The position numbers and the translations under genes were made by a program. The notes below the pieces were generated by a model that worked only from the letters and a program-made list of their open reading frames with translations, was not told the DNA's origin and did no database searches. DNA of 22,453 nucleotides from a virus, in the IMG/VR virus record IMGVR_UViG_3300031775_000046, positions 1-22,453 of that record; one strand, given 5' to 3'. Of this stretch, positions 1,583 through 14,240 are shown one piece after another (positions within the stretch are counted from its first letter, which is position 1; every line of letters starts with the position of its first letter).

Positions 1583-2183
1583 GATACTCAAATATATAAT
1601 GATCGGTTCTATAGGTCTGTTACTTGCAAATTGTTCTAGTAGCACTTATAAAATCAAACAAGAAAAGGATAAACAAGTCCTTAAAGTACCATCTTGGTAT
1701 ATGAAAGATTATAACGAGAAGAAAGAATGTGGTACTAAAACGTTCGGCAAAGGCAAAGATAAAGTTTGTATCTTTGGTGTCGGTACGAGTGTTTCACCAG
1801 ATTTAGAACTTGCAATTGAAAAAGGTATGATGATTGCAAAGGCTGAACTTGCTGATAAAGTAAAAGGTGAGATGAATAAGAAAGCGAAAATATTTACTAC
1901 TGAATTAGGTAAGAATACTAATAAGACCGTAGTTACAGATGTTGAAACTACATTGGTAAATATAATTAAACAAACACCTGTAAGAGGTTATGAAGTGTTT
2001 GCTCAGGAAGTAACGCTTACAAAGAACGGATACTATCGTTCTTGGATAGGTTTAAGATTACCTATGGGTGAATACAATAAGATGTATAACTACTCTATTG
2101 AAACTGTTGTTGACGCTTTCAAACTAAAAGAAATGGCTGATAAGGCCTATGACGAAGTAGAGGTTATTGCTAATGAGCAGTAA
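1575..2183 (+). CDS. LPP20-family-like lipoprotein
   Basis: A 202-residue lipoprotein: MSKILKYIMIG signal, lipobox LLANC with the lipid Cys at residue 20. Residues about 60-105 carry the pattern of LPP20/LPP20-like lipoproteins: a short strand with FGVGTS, then a long Ala-rich helix with AIEKGMMIAKAELADKVKG. A second strand region (about 140-165) includes YRSWIGLRLPMGEYN. Start at 1575 follows a strong GGAGAAGG site and overlaps the previous gene by 8 bases. It probably sits in the outer membrane. Phage use of this family is unusual and may reflect acquisition from a host. Confidence 0.75.
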   Translation: MSKILKYIMIGSIGLLLANCSSSTYKIKQEKDKQVLKVPSWYMKDYNEKKECGTKTFGKGKDKVCIFGVGTSVSPDLELAIEKGMMIAKAELADKVKGEMNKKAKIFTTELGKNTNKTVVTDVETTLVNIIKQTPVRGYEVFAQEVTLTKNGYYRSWIGLRLPMGEYNKMYNYSIETVVDAFKLKEMADKAYDEVEVIANEQ

Positions 2184-2442
2184 AATAGAAATATACTCAA
2201 AGCCCAATTGTACATATTGTACAAAATCAAAACACTTGGTTAAGAGTTTGGGCTTTGAATACACAGAAAAGATGTTTGGTAAAGACTTTAAAACACCAGA
2301 CGAGTTATTTGAGGCCGTAGGTAAACAAGTAAGAACTATGCCACAAATATTAATTGATGATAAACATATCGGTGGGTACAATGAATTAGTTGAATACTTT
2401 GCCGATAAAGGTTTAGTAAACTTTAAGGGTGAGAAAATATAA
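2173..2442 (+). CDS. grx: glutaredoxin
   Basis: An 89-residue glutaredoxin covering the complete fold. Active-site CTYC is at residues 13-16, the cis-Pro TMPQ loop at 55-58 and the glutathione-binding GGYNEL at 67-72. Glutaredoxins reduce disulfides with glutathione; in T4-like phages they can supply electrons to ribonucleotide reductase. ATG at 2173 is preferred over the in-frame TTG at 2167 because it gives the usual short N-terminus; it overlaps the previous stop by 11 bases. Two active-site Cys favour the dithiol class over the monothiol Fe-S-carrier class. Confidence 0.93.
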   Translation: MSSKIEIYSKPNCTYCTKSKHLVKSLGFEYTEKMFGKDFKTPDELFEAVGKQVRTMPQILIDDKHIGGYNELVEYFADKGLVNFKGEKI

Positions 2443-8588: not shown

Positions 8589-8721
8589 ATGGGATGGTAA
8601 GAGTAGAATACCTACTCAACTATACAAAGATAATTACAATAGAATATTTGGTAAGAAGGATGATAAAAGAAAGAATACAACAAAAGGGCGAAGACCTAAA
8701 AATGTTGCAAGGGCACGATAG
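8578..8721 (+). CDS. small basic conserved phage protein
   Basis: A 47-residue, very basic protein beginning MPGKWDGKSRIP, with LYKDNYNRIFGKK in the middle and a Lys/Arg tail ending VARAR. Short proteins with this KWDGKSR...IFGK pattern are common in T4-like marine phages; function unknown, nucleic-acid binding plausible from charge. ATG at 8578 overlaps the previous gene by 11 bases; an upstream TTG/ATG extension at 8515 lies wholly inside that gene and is less likely. Confidence 0.7.
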   Translation: MPGKWDGKSRIPTQLYKDNYNRIFGKKDDKRKNTTKGRRPKNVARAR

Positions 8722-9064
8722 ACTTGCATATTTAATAGACATTGCCAAAGACGTAGAACAATTACCAGATGAAGTTAAAACAGATGATAATAAGATAAGA
8801 GGTTGTGCTAGTAATCTATGGTTGATTGGTGGTGCAAAAGAAGATAATACAATGATATATAAGATTGACGCTGACGCATTTATAACAAAAGGTACAGCAA
8901 AGTTAGTTACTGACTTATGCAATGGTTGTCCTAAAGACGAAGTTGCTAGTTTAACTATAGAAGACTTTTTACCTTTAGGCGTTAAAGAACTTTTAACTAT
9001 GCAAAGACAGAATGGTCTAGGCAGTTTGATAGAGAGGATAGTAACAATAGCAAATACTAAATAG
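8702..9064 (+). CDS. sufE: SufE-like sulfur acceptor
   Basis: A 120-residue SufE-domain protein. The core motif KIRGCASNLWLIGG (31-44) has the conserved sulfur-accepting Cys35; FITKGTAKLVTDL and the C-terminal LGSLIERI also match the family. SufE takes persulfide sulfur from a cysteine desulfurase (SufS) for Fe-S cluster assembly. No desulfurase gene is in the window, so it presumably works with the host enzyme. Start ATG 8702 overlaps the previous gene by 20 bases; ATG 8660 would add 14 residues (including LKMLQ) and give an N-terminus closer to cellular SufE, at the cost of a 62-base overlap. Confidence 0.88.
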   Translation: MLQGHDRLAYLIDIAKDVEQLPDEVKTDDNKIRGCASNLWLIGGAKEDNTMIYKIDADAFITKGTAKLVTDLCNGCPKDEVASLTIEDFLPLGVKELLTMQRQNGLGSLIERIVTIANTK

Positions 9065-11052: not shown

Positions 11053-11631
11053 ATGAAATACACCATTGTTATGTTAATTGATTTTATTGGTCATCCTTTA
11101 TTGGGTGACCAATATACAAACGGTAGAAGATATTCCGAATTACTTAAATTTGCTACATGTTCAAACCTTGACAAAGATAATATTGTCTTTGTTACAAATA
11201 CAAAACCAGAGCATAATGAATTTTCTGAATTGTTAGCAATGTTACATGGTGCAGGCTATGATATAGTCTATACTTCAAGCGAAGAACAAATATCAAACAT
11301 CATAGAAAAAGTAGAAGACCACATGAATTGGGATATTAAAGAATACAATACCCAAGTAATAATAGGTGGGTGTAATCTAGGTGGTTGTGTTATAAATGCA
11401 AAACCTATGAGTGCAGTATTTTGGCAACTAAAAGGTTACAAAACTACAATACATTTACCATTATGTGCAGAATATGAGCAACCAGGTGCTAATCAGATAG
11501 AGAAAGTCTATCGTAGTATTGAGCAACTATTTCATTTTACAAAAGAATATAAAGCATTTGGCATAGAATATTGTACAGATTTTCATAGATTAAAGATGGC
11601 CTACAAGGGGCTTGACAATATTGACAAATAA
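11053..11631 (+). CDS. unknown protein, possibly cysteine-hydrolase-like
   Basis: A 192-residue protein. MKYTIVMLIDFIGHPLLG opens like a strand plus acidic loop, NIVFVTNTKPEHNEF and YDIVYTSSEEQI are further strands, and TQVIIGGCNLGGCVINAKPMSAVFW (about 103-127) resembles the strand-Cys-helix of isochorismatase/nicotinamidase hydrolases. That similarity is only suggestive. ATG 11053 follows AAAAGG; an in-frame upstream start at 11035 has a poorer site. The hairpin at 11085-11114 lies inside codons 11-21. Confidence 0.75.
   Translation: MKYTIVMLIDFIGHPLLGDQYTNGRRYSELLKFATCSNLDKDNIVFVTNTKPEHNEFSELLAMLHGAGYDIVYTSSEEQISNIIEKVEDHMNWDIKEYNTQVIIGGCNLGGCVINAKPMSAVFWQLKGYKTTIHLPLCAEYEQPGANQIEKVYRSIEQLFHFTKEYKAFGIEYCTDFHRLKMAYKGLDNIDK
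11085..11114 (+). repeat. strong intragenic hairpin
   Basis: TATTGGTCATCC (11085-11096) pairs with GGGTGACCAATA (11103-11114), 12 base pairs with one T-G wobble around a TTTATT loop, centred about 47 bases inside the gene that starts at 11053. It is unusually strong for AT-rich coding sequence and may affect early elongation or RNA decay. Confidence 0.65.
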
Positions 11632-11640
11632 TGATATAAT
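11612..11640 (+). promoter_or_regulatory. sigma70-type promoter
   Basis: TTGACA at 11612-11617 preceded by GC, 17-base spacer, TATAAT at 11635-11640 preceded by TGA. A second TTGACA at 11621-11626 lies inside the spacer. It overlaps the end of the previous gene and drives the nuclease at 11671; transcripts could read through to 12391 and the tmRNA. Confidence 0.8.
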
Positions 11641-11670: not shown

Positions 11671-12375
11671 ATGGCGTTTAATTATGTAGAACTGAATGAA
11701 GAAAAACTACCTAAAACTTTAGGTGTGAAAGGTAAGAACCAAGATGGTATAAGATATTATACTATTGATGGTGTTAATATGCCTTCTGTTACTTCTATTC
11801 TAGGTGCGATTCCCGAAAGAAAAGTAAAGATTGAAGGTTGGCGTAATGCAGTTGGTGAGAAGATGGCCAACTACATATCTGCCTCTGCCATAAATAGAGG
11901 TAAGGCAACCCACACACTAATAGAAAATCATATTAGAAACCAAGATGAGAAGTCTATGGGTATCACAGCTGTGACACCACTAGGTCTGTTTAGAATTATT
12001 AAACCTTATCTTGCTAGACTTGATAACATACATTGTGTAGAAGAATATCTATACTCAAAAGAGATTAGTGTTGCAGGTCAAGTAGATTGTATTGCTGAAT
12101 ATAAAGGCAAACTATCTGTAATTGATTTTAAGACCAGTACAAAACAAAGAGATAAAGATTACAACTATGGTAACTTCTTACAATGTTCAGCATATGCTAA
12201 AATGTTTGAAGAAATCTATCCTAACAAAAAGATAGAACAAACGGTTATTTTGGCTGCCTGTGAAGACGGGTTTGTACAAGAGTGGATACATGGGCCAGAG
12301 AGCATTGCAAAACACCAAGAGCTGTTTTATAAGCACACGAAAGACTTTTTTGAAAGGAATAGTATAAATAGTTAG
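11671..12375 (+). CDS. PD-(D/E)XK exonuclease, MGME1/RecB-like
   Basis: A 234-residue nuclease. The catalytic signature is GQVDCIAEYKGKLSVIDFKTS: Asp139, Asp152 and Lys154 form the D...(D/E)XK core, followed by the QCSAYAKMFEE helix (171-181) typical of RecB/Cas4/MGME1 relatives. Conserved His81 in RGKATHTLIE also fits the family. It probably degrades DNA from ends during phage recombination or repair, or host DNA breakdown. GGAAGG lies 8 bases before ATG. Its last 13 bases contain the late promoter of the next gene. Cyanophages carry similar nucleases. Confidence 0.88.
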   Translation: MAFNYVELNEEKLPKTLGVKGKNQDGIRYYTIDGVNMPSVTSILGAIPERKVKIEGWRNAVGEKMANYISASAINRGKATHTLIENHIRNQDEKSMGITAVTPLGLFRIIKPYLARLDNIHCVEEYLYSKEISVAGQVDCIAEYKGKLSVIDFKTSTKQRDKDYNYGNFLQCSAYAKMFEEIYPNKKIEQTVILAACEDGFVQEWIHGPESIAKHQELFYKHTKDFFERNSINS

Positions 12376-12390
12376 ACCGAAAGGCTAACT
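12363..12390 (+). promoter_or_regulatory. T4-type late promoter with RBS-masking hairpin
   Basis: TATAAATA (12363-12370) is an exact late box. Directly after it, AGTTAG (12370-12375) pairs with CTAACT (12385-12390) and CC with GG around a GAAA loop, with one bulged A. The only ribosome site, AAAGG (12380-12384), is inside this hairpin. T4 spacing puts the late start at 12376, just past the 5' arm, so late RNA could not form the outer stem. Confidence 0.7.
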
Positions 12391-12765
12391 ATGAAAAAAC
12401 TATTACTATCTATACTCGGACTATTATTGTTAACAAGTGTAACAATTGCTGAAGAGTCAGAAATCAAAAAGTACAACTTCTATTGGGATGAAGTACCTGT
12501 AGTTTGTGGTGCACCTGAAGAAATTGATCGTTGGGCGAATGATAAAGGTTTTACACCTCTCTCATTAAGTTACGGCAAAGAAGGTGGTGATCCAGATGGT
12601 GTAGTAGTTTATATAGTAGTATATTATTTAAATAAAAGCAACGGCGAAACATTTGCAACCGTTACCACACCTACTGGTAAAGATGTATGCGTAATTTTTA
12701 GAACATTTAATTTACAATTAAATCCTGAAATTATGGAACAATACGCACCAGGACTTAATTTATAG
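12391..12765 (+). CDS. exported hypothetical protein under late translational control
   Basis: A 124-residue exported protein: signal peptide MKKLLLSILGLLLLTSVTIA cleaved before EESEIK. The mature part has two Cys (in VVCGAPEE and DVCVIF), perhaps a disulfide, and is strand-rich (YFDG-type turns, VVVYIVVYYLN). Function unknown. ATG directly abuts the hairpin at 12370-12390; a late transcript would expose AAAGG six bases upstream. The arrangement copies the known control of the T4 lysozyme gene e, where early read-through RNA hides the ribosome site. The tmRNA follows 5 bases or so after its stop. Confidence 0.75.
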   Translation: MKKLLLSILGLLLLTSVTIAEESEIKKYNFYWDEVPVVCGAPEEIDRWANDKGFTPLSLSYGKEGGDPDGVVVYIVVYYLNKSNGETFATVTTPTGKDVCVIFRTFNLQLNPEIMEQYAPGLNL

Positions 12766-12770
12766 AATTT

Positions 12771-12998
12771 AACGTAGAAGGTATGATAATACCTGTAGAA
12801 GACCCGAGTGCAATTCTCGGCTACTCCACCATCTAAACAATGAAATTTAGGGGGTAGAGTTAGGATCGATTCACAGATAAAACATACTGGAGTTAAATGG
12901 TTGACTACCTTATAGTCTTTATAAACGCAAATAATAACTTTGCAATGGCAGCTTAATCTGCTATAAGGGTTTGCCTGTACCTAGTAACAGAAACAGGC
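12771..12998 (+). ncRNA. ssrA: permuted two-piece tmRNA (alphaproteobacterial type)
   Basis: Acceptor piece first: P2 strand and T arm with stem CCGAG/CTCGG (12804-12808, 12816-12820) around TGCAATT, then CTACTCC-A-CCA (12821-12831). A 19-base intervening segment follows, then the coding piece starting at 12851. GGGGTAG (12851-12857) pairs with CTACTCC as a perfect 7-bp acceptor stem with the G3-U70 wobble (G12853/T12825) recognised by alanyl-tRNA synthetase. GGATCGAT (12863-12870) is the D-loop analogue. P2 pairs: CATAC/GTATG and ACAG/CTGT. A GACTA/TAGTC hairpin (PK1 position) precedes the tag frame 12927-12956, encoding ANNNFAMAA and stop; GCAG/CTGC brackets the stop as P5. GCCTGT/ACAGGC (12973-12998) may end it. 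It rescues stalled ribosomes and tags their products. Exact processed ends are not determined. Confidence 0.92.
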
Positions 12999-13026
12999 TT
13001 GACAAATACGTAGATTGTGATATAAT
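12999..13026 (+). promoter_or_regulatory. sigma70-type promoter
   Basis: TTGACA at 12999-13004 preceded by GC, 16-base spacer, TATAAT at 13021-13026 preceded by TGA. It starts directly at the end of the tmRNA's last hairpin and drives 13050, gp33 and gp59; predicted start is near 13033, with AGTGAGG as ribosome site. Confidence 0.8.
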
Positions 13027-13049
13027 ATTATTATAAAGTGAGGTAAATT

Positions 13050-13253
13050 ATGGCAGATAATTACAATAGAGATTCGCATGAGCAAGATATGACTTATGAG
13101 AATGAGCAATCAACGGTAACAATACCGTTAAAAGAATATGATAGACTAAAAGCAGAACAAACTTATATTACAGACCCAAGTTTAATTAGTATCATAGATA
13201 AAATAGAAGAACTAACAAGAGCATTAAGAAAACACATAGTCAGAAAACTATAA
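13050..13253 (+). CDS. small hypothetical protein upstream of gp33
   Basis: A 67-residue protein: a polar, acidic N-terminus (about 1-22, DSHEQDMTYENEQ), a strand VTIPLKEYDRLKAEQ, and a C-terminal helix IIDKIEELTRALRKHIVRKL. The ITIPLxEYDxL pattern is common in phage coiled-coil proteins and often precedes an oligomerising helix. GTGAGG lies 9 bases before ATG. Its stop overlaps the gp33 start (TAATG). Function unknown. Confidence 0.75.
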   Translation: MADNYNRDSHEQDMTYENEQSTVTIPLKEYDRLKAEQTYITDPSLISIIDKIEELTRALRKHIVRKL

Positions 13254-13474
13254 TGTTAATGAATAGTAAAAAGTTTGCTCTTATTATAGAGGGCGTAGTA
13301 AAGGATAAAAGAATATCTTACCTGGATGCTGTATTGCATTATTGTGAAGATAACGACATAGACACAGCGTCTGTAGGTCCTTTAATCAACAAATCATTAA
13401 AAGAAAAAATAAAAGCAGAGGCAGAAAAACTGAACTTGGTTGAGCGATCAAGTACAGCAGTTTTACCTATATGA
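13253..13474 (+). CDS. 33: late-transcription co-activator gp33
   Basis: A 73-residue homologue of T4 gp33, shorter than the T4 protein (about 112) as in cyanophages. ISYLDAVLHYCEDNDID (about 21-37) and LINKSLKEKIKAEAEKLNL (about 43-61) match T4 SYLEATTAFLEENSI and IIEKIQSEA. gp33 links the RNA polymerase beta flap to the sliding clamp and, with gp55, activates late promoters; the TATAAATA boxes in the window fit. The C-terminal hydrophobic end (VLPI) corresponds to the clamp-binding tail. ATG 13259 is an alternative start two codons later. It overlaps gp59 by 4 bases. Confidence 0.87.
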   Translation: MLMNSKKFALIIEGVVKDKRISYLDAVLHYCEDNDIDTASVGPLINKSLKEKIKAEAEKLNLVERSSTAVLPI

Positions 13475-14073
13475 ATAGTTATGAAGCATATACATTATAT
13501 TTGGCTATTAAACTACACTTCACTTCCGATAGTTATGATTTTTACAGGCACAATGCCAAAGTTAATTCATCATTTAACACATTTTTAAAACGTAATGATA
13601 GATTTTTCTTTCATAAACTTACAACTAAATATACAAAGGAAGAAATGCTAGATTATTTTATATGTAACTTCTTCCATAATTCAAAAACATGGATAGGCAA
13701 TTTAGTTAGAGCAGATGGAGAAACTACTTACAATAAGTGGCGAAAGTATAATCAATCTTTTACGTACAATTTTAGAGGGGATTGTGTATTACTTTCTAAT
13801 GTCATTAATGATAATTCTATTTTGTTTGATGATGTGTTTCGTGTACATAATGGGCAACATCCACGATTGCTACGACTACTTCTATCTGAAAAAATATCAG
13901 TACAAACAATCATCATCTTGGATAAGATTTTATCTTTTATTAAGAGATGGGACAAAGACATTGCTGAAACAGTTATCTGGCCTGAAAAATCGTTTAAAAT
14001 AAAGAAACTATCACCATTTATAAAGTTTAACCTTACTAAATGTAAGTTTATAATGAAAGAGGTATTTGTGTGA
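13471..14073 (+). CDS. 59: helicase loader gp59
   Basis: A 200-residue homologue of T4 gp59 (217). YEAYTLYLAIKLHF aligns with VYKLYLMIKQHM, NDRFFFHKLTTKY with RDKYFFQKLSEKY and NSKTWIGNL with NQDAWIGDI; RLLLSEKISVQTIIILDKIL matches the C-terminal domain. gp59 binds forked DNA and gp32 and loads the gp41 helicase during recombination-dependent replication. gp33-gp59-...-gp32 is the T4 gene order, here with four extra genes between gp59 and gp32. The C-terminus is basic, as expected for DNA binding. Confidence 0.9.
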   Translation: MNSYEAYTLYLAIKLHFTSDSYDFYRHNAKVNSSFNTFLKRNDRFFFHKLTTKYTKEEMLDYFICNFFHNSKTWIGNLVRADGETTYNKWRKYNQSFTYNFRGDCVLLSNVINDNSILFDDVFRVHNGQHPRLLRLLLSEKISVQTIIILDKILSFIKRWDKDIAETVIWPEKSFKIKKLSPFIKFNLTKCKFIMKEVFV

Positions 14074-14240
14074 ACGAATATGTACCGCCACCATGTATAA
14101 ACATATGTACAATAGATGAAGAAAGTGGTTATTGTATGGGTTGCAGTAGAACAAAAGAAGAAATAGAGAAGTGGGATCATCCTGATACAACTAAAGAATG
14201 GAAAGAAAACAATTTGAAGGAGTTAGATGGAAGAGGGTAA
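14070..14240 (+). CDS. DUF1289-family cysteine-rich protein
   Basis: A 56-residue ORF from GTG 14070, overlapping the gp59 stop by 4 bases. PPCINICTIDEESGYCMGCSRTKEEIEKW is split here as PCINIC, then YCMGCSRTKEEIEKW: four Cys at 9, 13, 22 and 25 and the SRTKEEI...W ending of DUF1289 proteins, common in alpha- and gammaproteobacteria. The Cys set probably binds zinc or an Fe-S cluster. Function unknown. It is probably host-derived and overlaps the next gene by 14 bases. Confidence 0.83.
   Translation: MNEYVPPPCINICTIDEESGYCMGCSRTKEEIEKWDHPDTTKEWKENNLKELDGRG

What the first reader, a model, noticed from the sequence alone, without database searches (positions are those of the whole stretch)
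12771..12998. Phage carries a circularly permuted, two-piece tmRNA
Seen: a CCA-ended T-arm piece lies upstream of a GGGG-started D-loop piece; the two form a perfect 7-bp acceptor stem with G3-U70 and pair again in P2 (CATAC/GTATG, ACAG/CTGT). The downstream piece encodes a short tag ending AMAA-stop inside a P5-like hairpin. Known: permuted two-piece tmRNA is characteristic of alphaproteobacteria. Inference: the phage took it from its host and uses it to keep ribosomes recycling, or to redirect tagging, during infection.
Basis: partly seen in the sequence, partly recalled or inferred. Interest (0 to 1): 0.88.

Follow-up and report, generated by a model that had tools for sequence, protein, structure and literature searches.

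The report
Marine phage carries two-piece tmRNA
This ocean phage really does carry its own ribosome-rescue RNA (a two-piece tmRNA), but the same gene at the same place is already annotated and published in related phages of SAR11 and OM43 bacteria, so it is a sound new example rather than a new kind of thing.

Summary
Confirmed. The window, a fragment of a T4-like marine myophage, holds a circularly permuted, two-piece alphaproteobacterial-type tmRNA at about 12766-12998 (Rfam RF04321 87.6 bits, RF01849 79.1 bits; ARAGORN tag ANNNFAMAA). Among 27 distinct phage relatives, 27 of 40 base pairs have changes on both sides, while G3-U70 and the encoded CCA are invariant. The structure is under selection, so this is neither chance nor a decaying remnant.

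The phage copies form their own clade (support 0.98), so recent capture from the present host is not supported. HTVC008M, Mosig and a 165-kb relative encode no SmpB; host SmpB is presumably used.

New details: alleles without the tmRNA; tag/3' ends swapped by recombination between otherwise near-identical tmRNAs; tags ending MAA/IAA in the window's group; and in Melnitz the glutamine riboswitch lies downstream of the tmRNA, so it probably controls gp33. Function during infection (rescue or re-tagging) is inferred, not shown.

The parts
12766..12998 (+). permuted tmRNA gene (ssrA), precursor region
   Evidence: Rfam RF04321 12769-12956 and RF01849 12722-13001; ARAGORN; covariation over 27 phage sequences
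12769..12831 (+). predicted mature 5' piece: P2 5' strands, T arm, acceptor 3' strand, encoded CCA
   Evidence: CM alignment; CTCCACCA invariant in alignment A1
12832..12850 (+). intervening segment between the two pieces (19 nt, CTAAA/TTTAG hairpin extending the acceptor stem; up to about 50 nt in relatives)
   Evidence: sequence; variants listed
12851..12998 (+). predicted mature 3' (coding) piece: acceptor 5' strand, D-loop, P2 3' strands, PK1, tag, 3' hairpin (148 nt)
   Evidence: CM alignment
12821..12857 (+). acceptor stem 12821-12827 with 12851-12857, G3-U70 = 12853/12825
   Evidence: helix 5: pairs 5 and 6 show compensatory changes (C-G, A-U, U-A types); G3-U70 27/27
12804..12820 (+). 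T stem-loop
   Evidence: helix 4: 3 of 5 pairs with double changes, 100% paired
12769..12896 (+). P2 helices joining the two pieces: 12769-12773/12892-12896, 12781-12785/12883-12887, 12793-12800/12870-12876
   Evidence: helices 1-3: 15 of 17 pairs with double changes
12899..12917 (+). PK1-like pseudoknot upstream of the resume codon
   Evidence: helices 6-7, GG/CC to CG/CG and GAC/GUC to GAU/AUC to AAC/GUU changes; window row misaligned by one base in stem 2
12927..12956 (+). tag reading frame: resume codon GCA to TAA, ANNNFAMAA; stop in hairpin loop 12952-12957
   Evidence: indels among relatives are multiples of three and every tag ends AA-stop
12973..12998 (+). 3'-terminal hairpin GCCUGU ... 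ACAGGC with conserved loop ACCUAGUAACAGAA
   Evidence: helices 8-9; stem wholly replaced (GATAGTTTT/AAAACTATC) in L010 and L022
11612..11640 (+). perfect sigma-70 promoter (12/12, extended -10) upstream of nuclease, ORF 12391-12765 and tmRNA; likely source of the tmRNA transcript
   Evidence: use is inferred
12999..13026 (+). perfect sigma-70 promoter directly behind the tmRNA, for ORF 13050 and gp33
   Evidence: kept in alleles without tmRNA
11671..12375 (+). PD-(D/E)XK exonuclease, upstream neighbour
   Evidence: phrog_298
12391..12765 (+). ORF of unknown function whose stop codon abuts the tmRNA
   Evidence: no family hit
13253..13474 (+). gp33-like late transcription coactivator
   Evidence: phrog_254

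Best explanation
It is a functional, phage-adapted, two-piece tmRNA gene. It is transcribed early with the upstream nuclease and ORF 12391-12765, and host tRNA-processing enzymes (RNase P and 3' processing) remove the 19-nt intervening segment. The two pieces, held together by the acceptor stem and P2, are charged by host AlaRS (G3-U70), bound by host SmpB, and rescue ribosomes stalled on broken or non-stop mRNAs during infection, adding the peptide A-ANNNFAMAA to the stalled protein for proteolysis. By supplying its own tmRNA the phage keeps ribosomes recycling while host transcripts are being destroyed. Shown here: structure, selection on structure, tag frame, locus and lineage. Inferred: transcription, processing, charging and rescue.
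For: Two Rfam families above gathering score and ARAGORN agree. Twenty-seven of 40 pairs have double changes and 158 double-changed cells were seen against a shuffled mean of 46.4; sliding the partners destroys the signal. G3-U70, acceptor pairs 1-4 and CCA are invariant in 27/27, while neighbouring acceptor, T-stem, P2, PK1 and 3'-hairpin pairs covary. Tag lengths of 8-10 codons differ only by multiples of three and all end AA-stop. The locus is conserved in 96 of 126 spanning loci, some contigs counted twice, and annotated as ssrA in Mosig and Melnitz. A perfect sigma-70 promoter lies upstream. No SmpB gene is found in HTVC008M, Mosig or a 165-kb relative, so host SmpB is the presumed partner.
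Against: No transcript, processing or tagging data exist. The gene is absent in 30 of 126 spanning loci, so it is dispensable. SAR11-like hosts already have their own tmRNA. The phage tmRNA scores well below host tmRNAs in the alpha model (60-107 bits against about 143-313), so it has diverged from the bacterial form.
Confidence: 0.72

Rival explanations
1. Tag redirection: the phage tmRNA competes with host tmRNA for SmpB and stalled ribosomes and writes a tag that the host protease adaptors read differently, so stalled products are spared or processed in a phage-favouring way.
For: The window's group has tags ending MAA or IAA (ANNNFAMAA, ANNLAMAA, ANNLAIAA, DNHIDYRMAA), while the SAR11-like hosts found have ANESYALAA and ANESYAIAA. 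The tag/3' module is exchanged by recombination between otherwise near-identical tmRNAs. A tag-less mycobacteriophage DS6A tmRNA inhibits host tmRNA in E. coli (cited in PMC11915505).
Against: All phage tags keep the C-terminal Ala-Ala that proteases read; HTVC008M, Mosig and Melnitz tags end LAA, as host tags do, and one SAR11-like host tag ends IAA.
Confidence: 0.2
2. Non-functional host remnant carried along by the phage.
For: Low CM score compared with bacterial tmRNA; absent in some relatives.
Against: Extensive compensatory change, invariant functional positions and in-frame tag indels.
Confidence: 0.03
3. Host DNA, assembly chimera or very recent capture from the current host.
For: Viral records of this size can be chimeric.
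Against: Same gene at the same phage locus in dozens of independent viral contigs and in the phage isolates HTVC008M, Mosig and Melnitz; phage clade separate from sampled hosts.
Confidence: 0.02

Closest known systems
ssrA of Pelagibacter phage Mosig EXVC030M (MT647606, Mosig_00148)
   Same: Permuted two-piece tmRNA at the orthologous site between the nuclease/small ORF and gp33, with gp59 further downstream.
   Different: Tag GEDNFALAA and a longer intervening segment; ORF 13050 is absent before gp33.
ssrA of Methylophilales phage Melnitz EXVC044M (MZ577097, gene 86; Buchholz et al. 2022, PMC9004378)
   Same: Permuted alpha-type tmRNA, same gene order, RF01849 106.7 bits.
   Different: Longer tag ANDNYVPVDYALAA and a glutamine riboswitch directly downstream; the window has no riboswitch and a sigma-70 promoter in that place.
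unannotated tmRNA of Pelagibacter phage HTVC008M (KC465899, about 145100-145410)
   Same: Same locus and the near-identical 3' hairpin that gave the blastn hit; RF01849 83.8 bits.
   Different: Tag ANFNEYALAA; not annotated in the record.
Alphaproteobacterial two-piece tmRNA (Rfam RF01849 / RF04321)
   Same: Gene order, two pieces, acceptor with G3-U70, P2, PK1, tag with stop in a hairpin, ACCUxGYAACAGAA 3' hairpin loop.
   Different: Shorter tag and coding piece than most, T-loop UGCAAUU rather than GGCGGUA/GGCAGUA, and much lower model score.

Membership tests
permuted tmRNA (Rfam RF04321 / RF01849) | covariance-model score above curated gathering score | tested here: met
   87.6 bits (47) and 79.1 bits (50)
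permuted tmRNA (Rfam RF04321 / RF01849) | CCA-ended acceptor 3' strand/T-arm piece lies upstream of the D-loop/coding piece | tested here: met
   12769-12831 before 12851-12998
permuted tmRNA (Rfam RF04321 / RF01849) | 7-bp acceptor stem with G3-U70 alanine identity pair | tested here: met
   sequence; G3-U70 in 27/27 relatives
permuted tmRNA (Rfam RF04321 / RF01849) | tag reading frame with resume codon and stop in a hairpin loop | tested here: met
   ANNNFAMAA*, 12927-12956
permuted tmRNA (Rfam RF04321 / RF01849) | P2 joining the pieces and PK1 upstream of the resume codon | tested here: met
   helices 1-3, 6 and 7
permuted tmRNA (Rfam RF04321 / RF01849) | processing into two mature RNAs | not testable with these tools
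   needs RNA from infected cells
permuted tmRNA (Rfam RF04321 / RF01849) | alanylation, SmpB binding and trans-translation | not testable with these tools
   needs biochemistry
pelagimyophage ssrA (Mosig/Melnitz type) | located between PD-(D/E)XK nuclease/small ORF and gp33, gp59 of a T4-like marine myophage | tested here: met
pelagimyophage ssrA (Mosig/Melnitz type) | glutamine riboswitch associated (Melnitz; reported for Mosig); common but not a defining feature according to PMC9004378 | tested here: not met
   no riboswitch in window 12300-13300 at E up to 1

The most novel reading that the evidence does not exclude
Phage tmRNAs of this locus are an evolving counter-system. The tRNA-like body is kept while the tag/3' module is exchanged by recombination between phages (for example L013 and L017: 5' part 152/154 identical, tag and 3' part 48/79), to re-address the fate of proteins released from stalled ribosomes during infection.
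Probability: 0.2. Interest if true: 0.6.

Novelty: new member of a known kind. Interest (0 to 1): 0.32.

Why it matters
It confirms that carrying a two-piece tmRNA is a stable, selected trait of a widespread group of marine T4-like phages and not a stray host fragment. It gives a comparative set (tags, alleles with and without the gene, mosaic copies) that makes the open question, what a phage gains from its own ribosome-rescue RNA, directly testable with isolates such as HTVC008M or Mosig.

Tried and rejected
Direct blastn of the tmRNA to phages found only the 33-bp 3' hairpin in HTVC008M and promoter-like matches in PaP3 and Lactococcus phages, which start at or near the promoter and are not tmRNA. 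A genome contigs pattern scan for the hairpin found only Novosphingobium; it served as an entry to the alphaproteobacterial class. A SAR11 16S probe search of 25 small genomes found none; one closed 1.21-Mb genome (G104, tag ANESYAIAA) later matched three SAR11 FISH probes, recalled from memory, with 1-2 mismatches, so the SAR11 label is probable, not certain. A glutamine riboswitch at the window locus was sought and not found. Plain MFE folding gives z = -2.15 with a misfolded two-piece topology; not used as evidence. Chance, remnant and chimera readings were rejected on covariation and synteny. No covariance model of our own was built because Rfam plus nhmmer were enough.

Full report
What is there. 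The window is a 22.5-kb viral record, 32.8% G+C, from a T4-like myophage: late-transcription coactivator gp33, helicase loader gp59, ssDNA-binding protein gp32, DNA end protector, tail tube and baseplate hub are present. Its nearest named relative is Pelagibacter phage Mosig (nuclease 49% and gp59 45% identical). Between the stop codon of ORF 12391-12765 and a perfect sigma-70 promoter at 12999-13026 lies a permuted tmRNA, found by two Rfam models and by ARAGORN.

Is it real. A set of 27 distinct phage tmRNAs was collected from the same locus. For a structure of 40 pairs, 95.1% of cells pair, 27 pairs show changes on both sides, and 158 cells are double changes (shuffled 46.4 +/- 5.4); sliding the partners by 1-3 columns drops pairing to 33-46%. 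Acceptor pairs 1-4, G3-U70 and CCA never change, while acceptor pairs 5 and 6, the T stem, P2, PK1 and the 3' hairpin change in a compensated way. The tag frame varies in steps of whole codons and always ends Ala-Ala-stop. This is the signature of a functional two-piece tmRNA under selection.

Where it sits. Of 126 loci spanning nuclease to gp33 (some contigs appear twice), 96 carry the tmRNA and 30 do not; ARAGORN alone misses 32 of the 96, which nhmmer recovers and Rfam confirms where tested. In most alleles without it, the small ORF's stop codon is followed almost directly by the same GC-TTGACA...TATAAT promoter, so the tmRNA behaves as a clean cassette between gene and promoter; L073 and L079 have a longer gap and no detected tmRNA. 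A second perfect promoter at 11612-11640 reads through the nuclease and ORF into the tmRNA and is the likely source of its transcript (inferred).

Origin. Phage copies from this locus, including HTVC008M and Mosig, form one clade (0.98) apart from the sampled alphaproteobacteria, including genomes that are probably SAR11. Short RNAs and long branches limit this tree, the host sample is unnamed, and Melnitz was not in it. The simplest reading is one old acquisition by this phage group. Some phage tmRNAs are mosaics: the tRNA-like part is at least 99% identical while the tag and 3' part is only 61-73% identical (L013/L017, L028/L048, L042/L056).

Mechanism. Shown: anatomy, selection, tag frame, locus, absence of SmpB in two isolate genomes and a 165-kb relative. 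Inferred from established tmRNA biology: early transcription, RNase P and 3' processing into pieces of about 63 and 148 nt, charging by host AlaRS, partnership with host SmpB, rescue of stalled ribosomes and tagging with A-ANNNFAMAA. Whether the gain to the phage is ribosome recycling or altered tag fate is open. The MAA/IAA endings of the window's group are suggestive only, since HTVC008M, Mosig and Melnitz tags end LAA.

What is known. Mosig and Melnitz records annotate ssrA in the same gene order. The window is therefore a new member of a known kind. One point of that paper looks doubtful: the Melnitz glutamine riboswitch (locus 2940-2988) starts after the tmRNA model ends (2932), upstream of the coactivator gene, so it more likely controls that gene than the tmRNA. 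In the window no riboswitch is found and a promoter lies there instead.

Noticed in passing
L381:2940-2988 (Melnitz): The glutamine riboswitch said to control the phage tmRNA lies just downstream of it, in the leader of the gp33-like coactivator gene, so the published regulatory reading may be misplaced.
   Followed up: partly
L013, L017, L028, L048, L042, L056: Mosaic tmRNAs: nearly identical tRNA-like parts joined to different tag/3' parts, as if the tag module is exchanged by recombination.
   Followed up: partly
L002:4725-5036 (HTVC008M, KC465899): An unannotated permuted tmRNA (tag ANFNEYALAA) in the isolate HTVC008M.
   Followed up: yes
L065, L068, L105, L120 and others: Alleles without the tmRNA keep the flanking ORFs and the perfect promoter; the tmRNA is a clean presence/absence cassette.
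   Followed up: partly
window 8636-9064: SufE-like Fe-S metabolism protein (PF02657, E 6.9e-28) encoded by the phage.
   Followed up: no
window 2167-2442: Phage glutaredoxin (PF00462).
   Followed up: no
window 14070-14240: DUF1289 cysteine-rich small protein (PF06945) encoded by the phage.
   Followed up: no
L076:1245-1565: Tag DNESYRMAA shares the NESY core and its DNA (AACGAAAGTTA) with probable SAR11 host tags ANESYALAA/ANESYAIAA; common descent or tag capture from a host is possible.
   Followed up: no
L033, L061, L092 and others: ARAGORN misses about a third of the phage permuted tmRNAs that nhmmer or Rfam RF04321 finds, so published counts based on ARAGORN are likely too low.
   Followed up: partly
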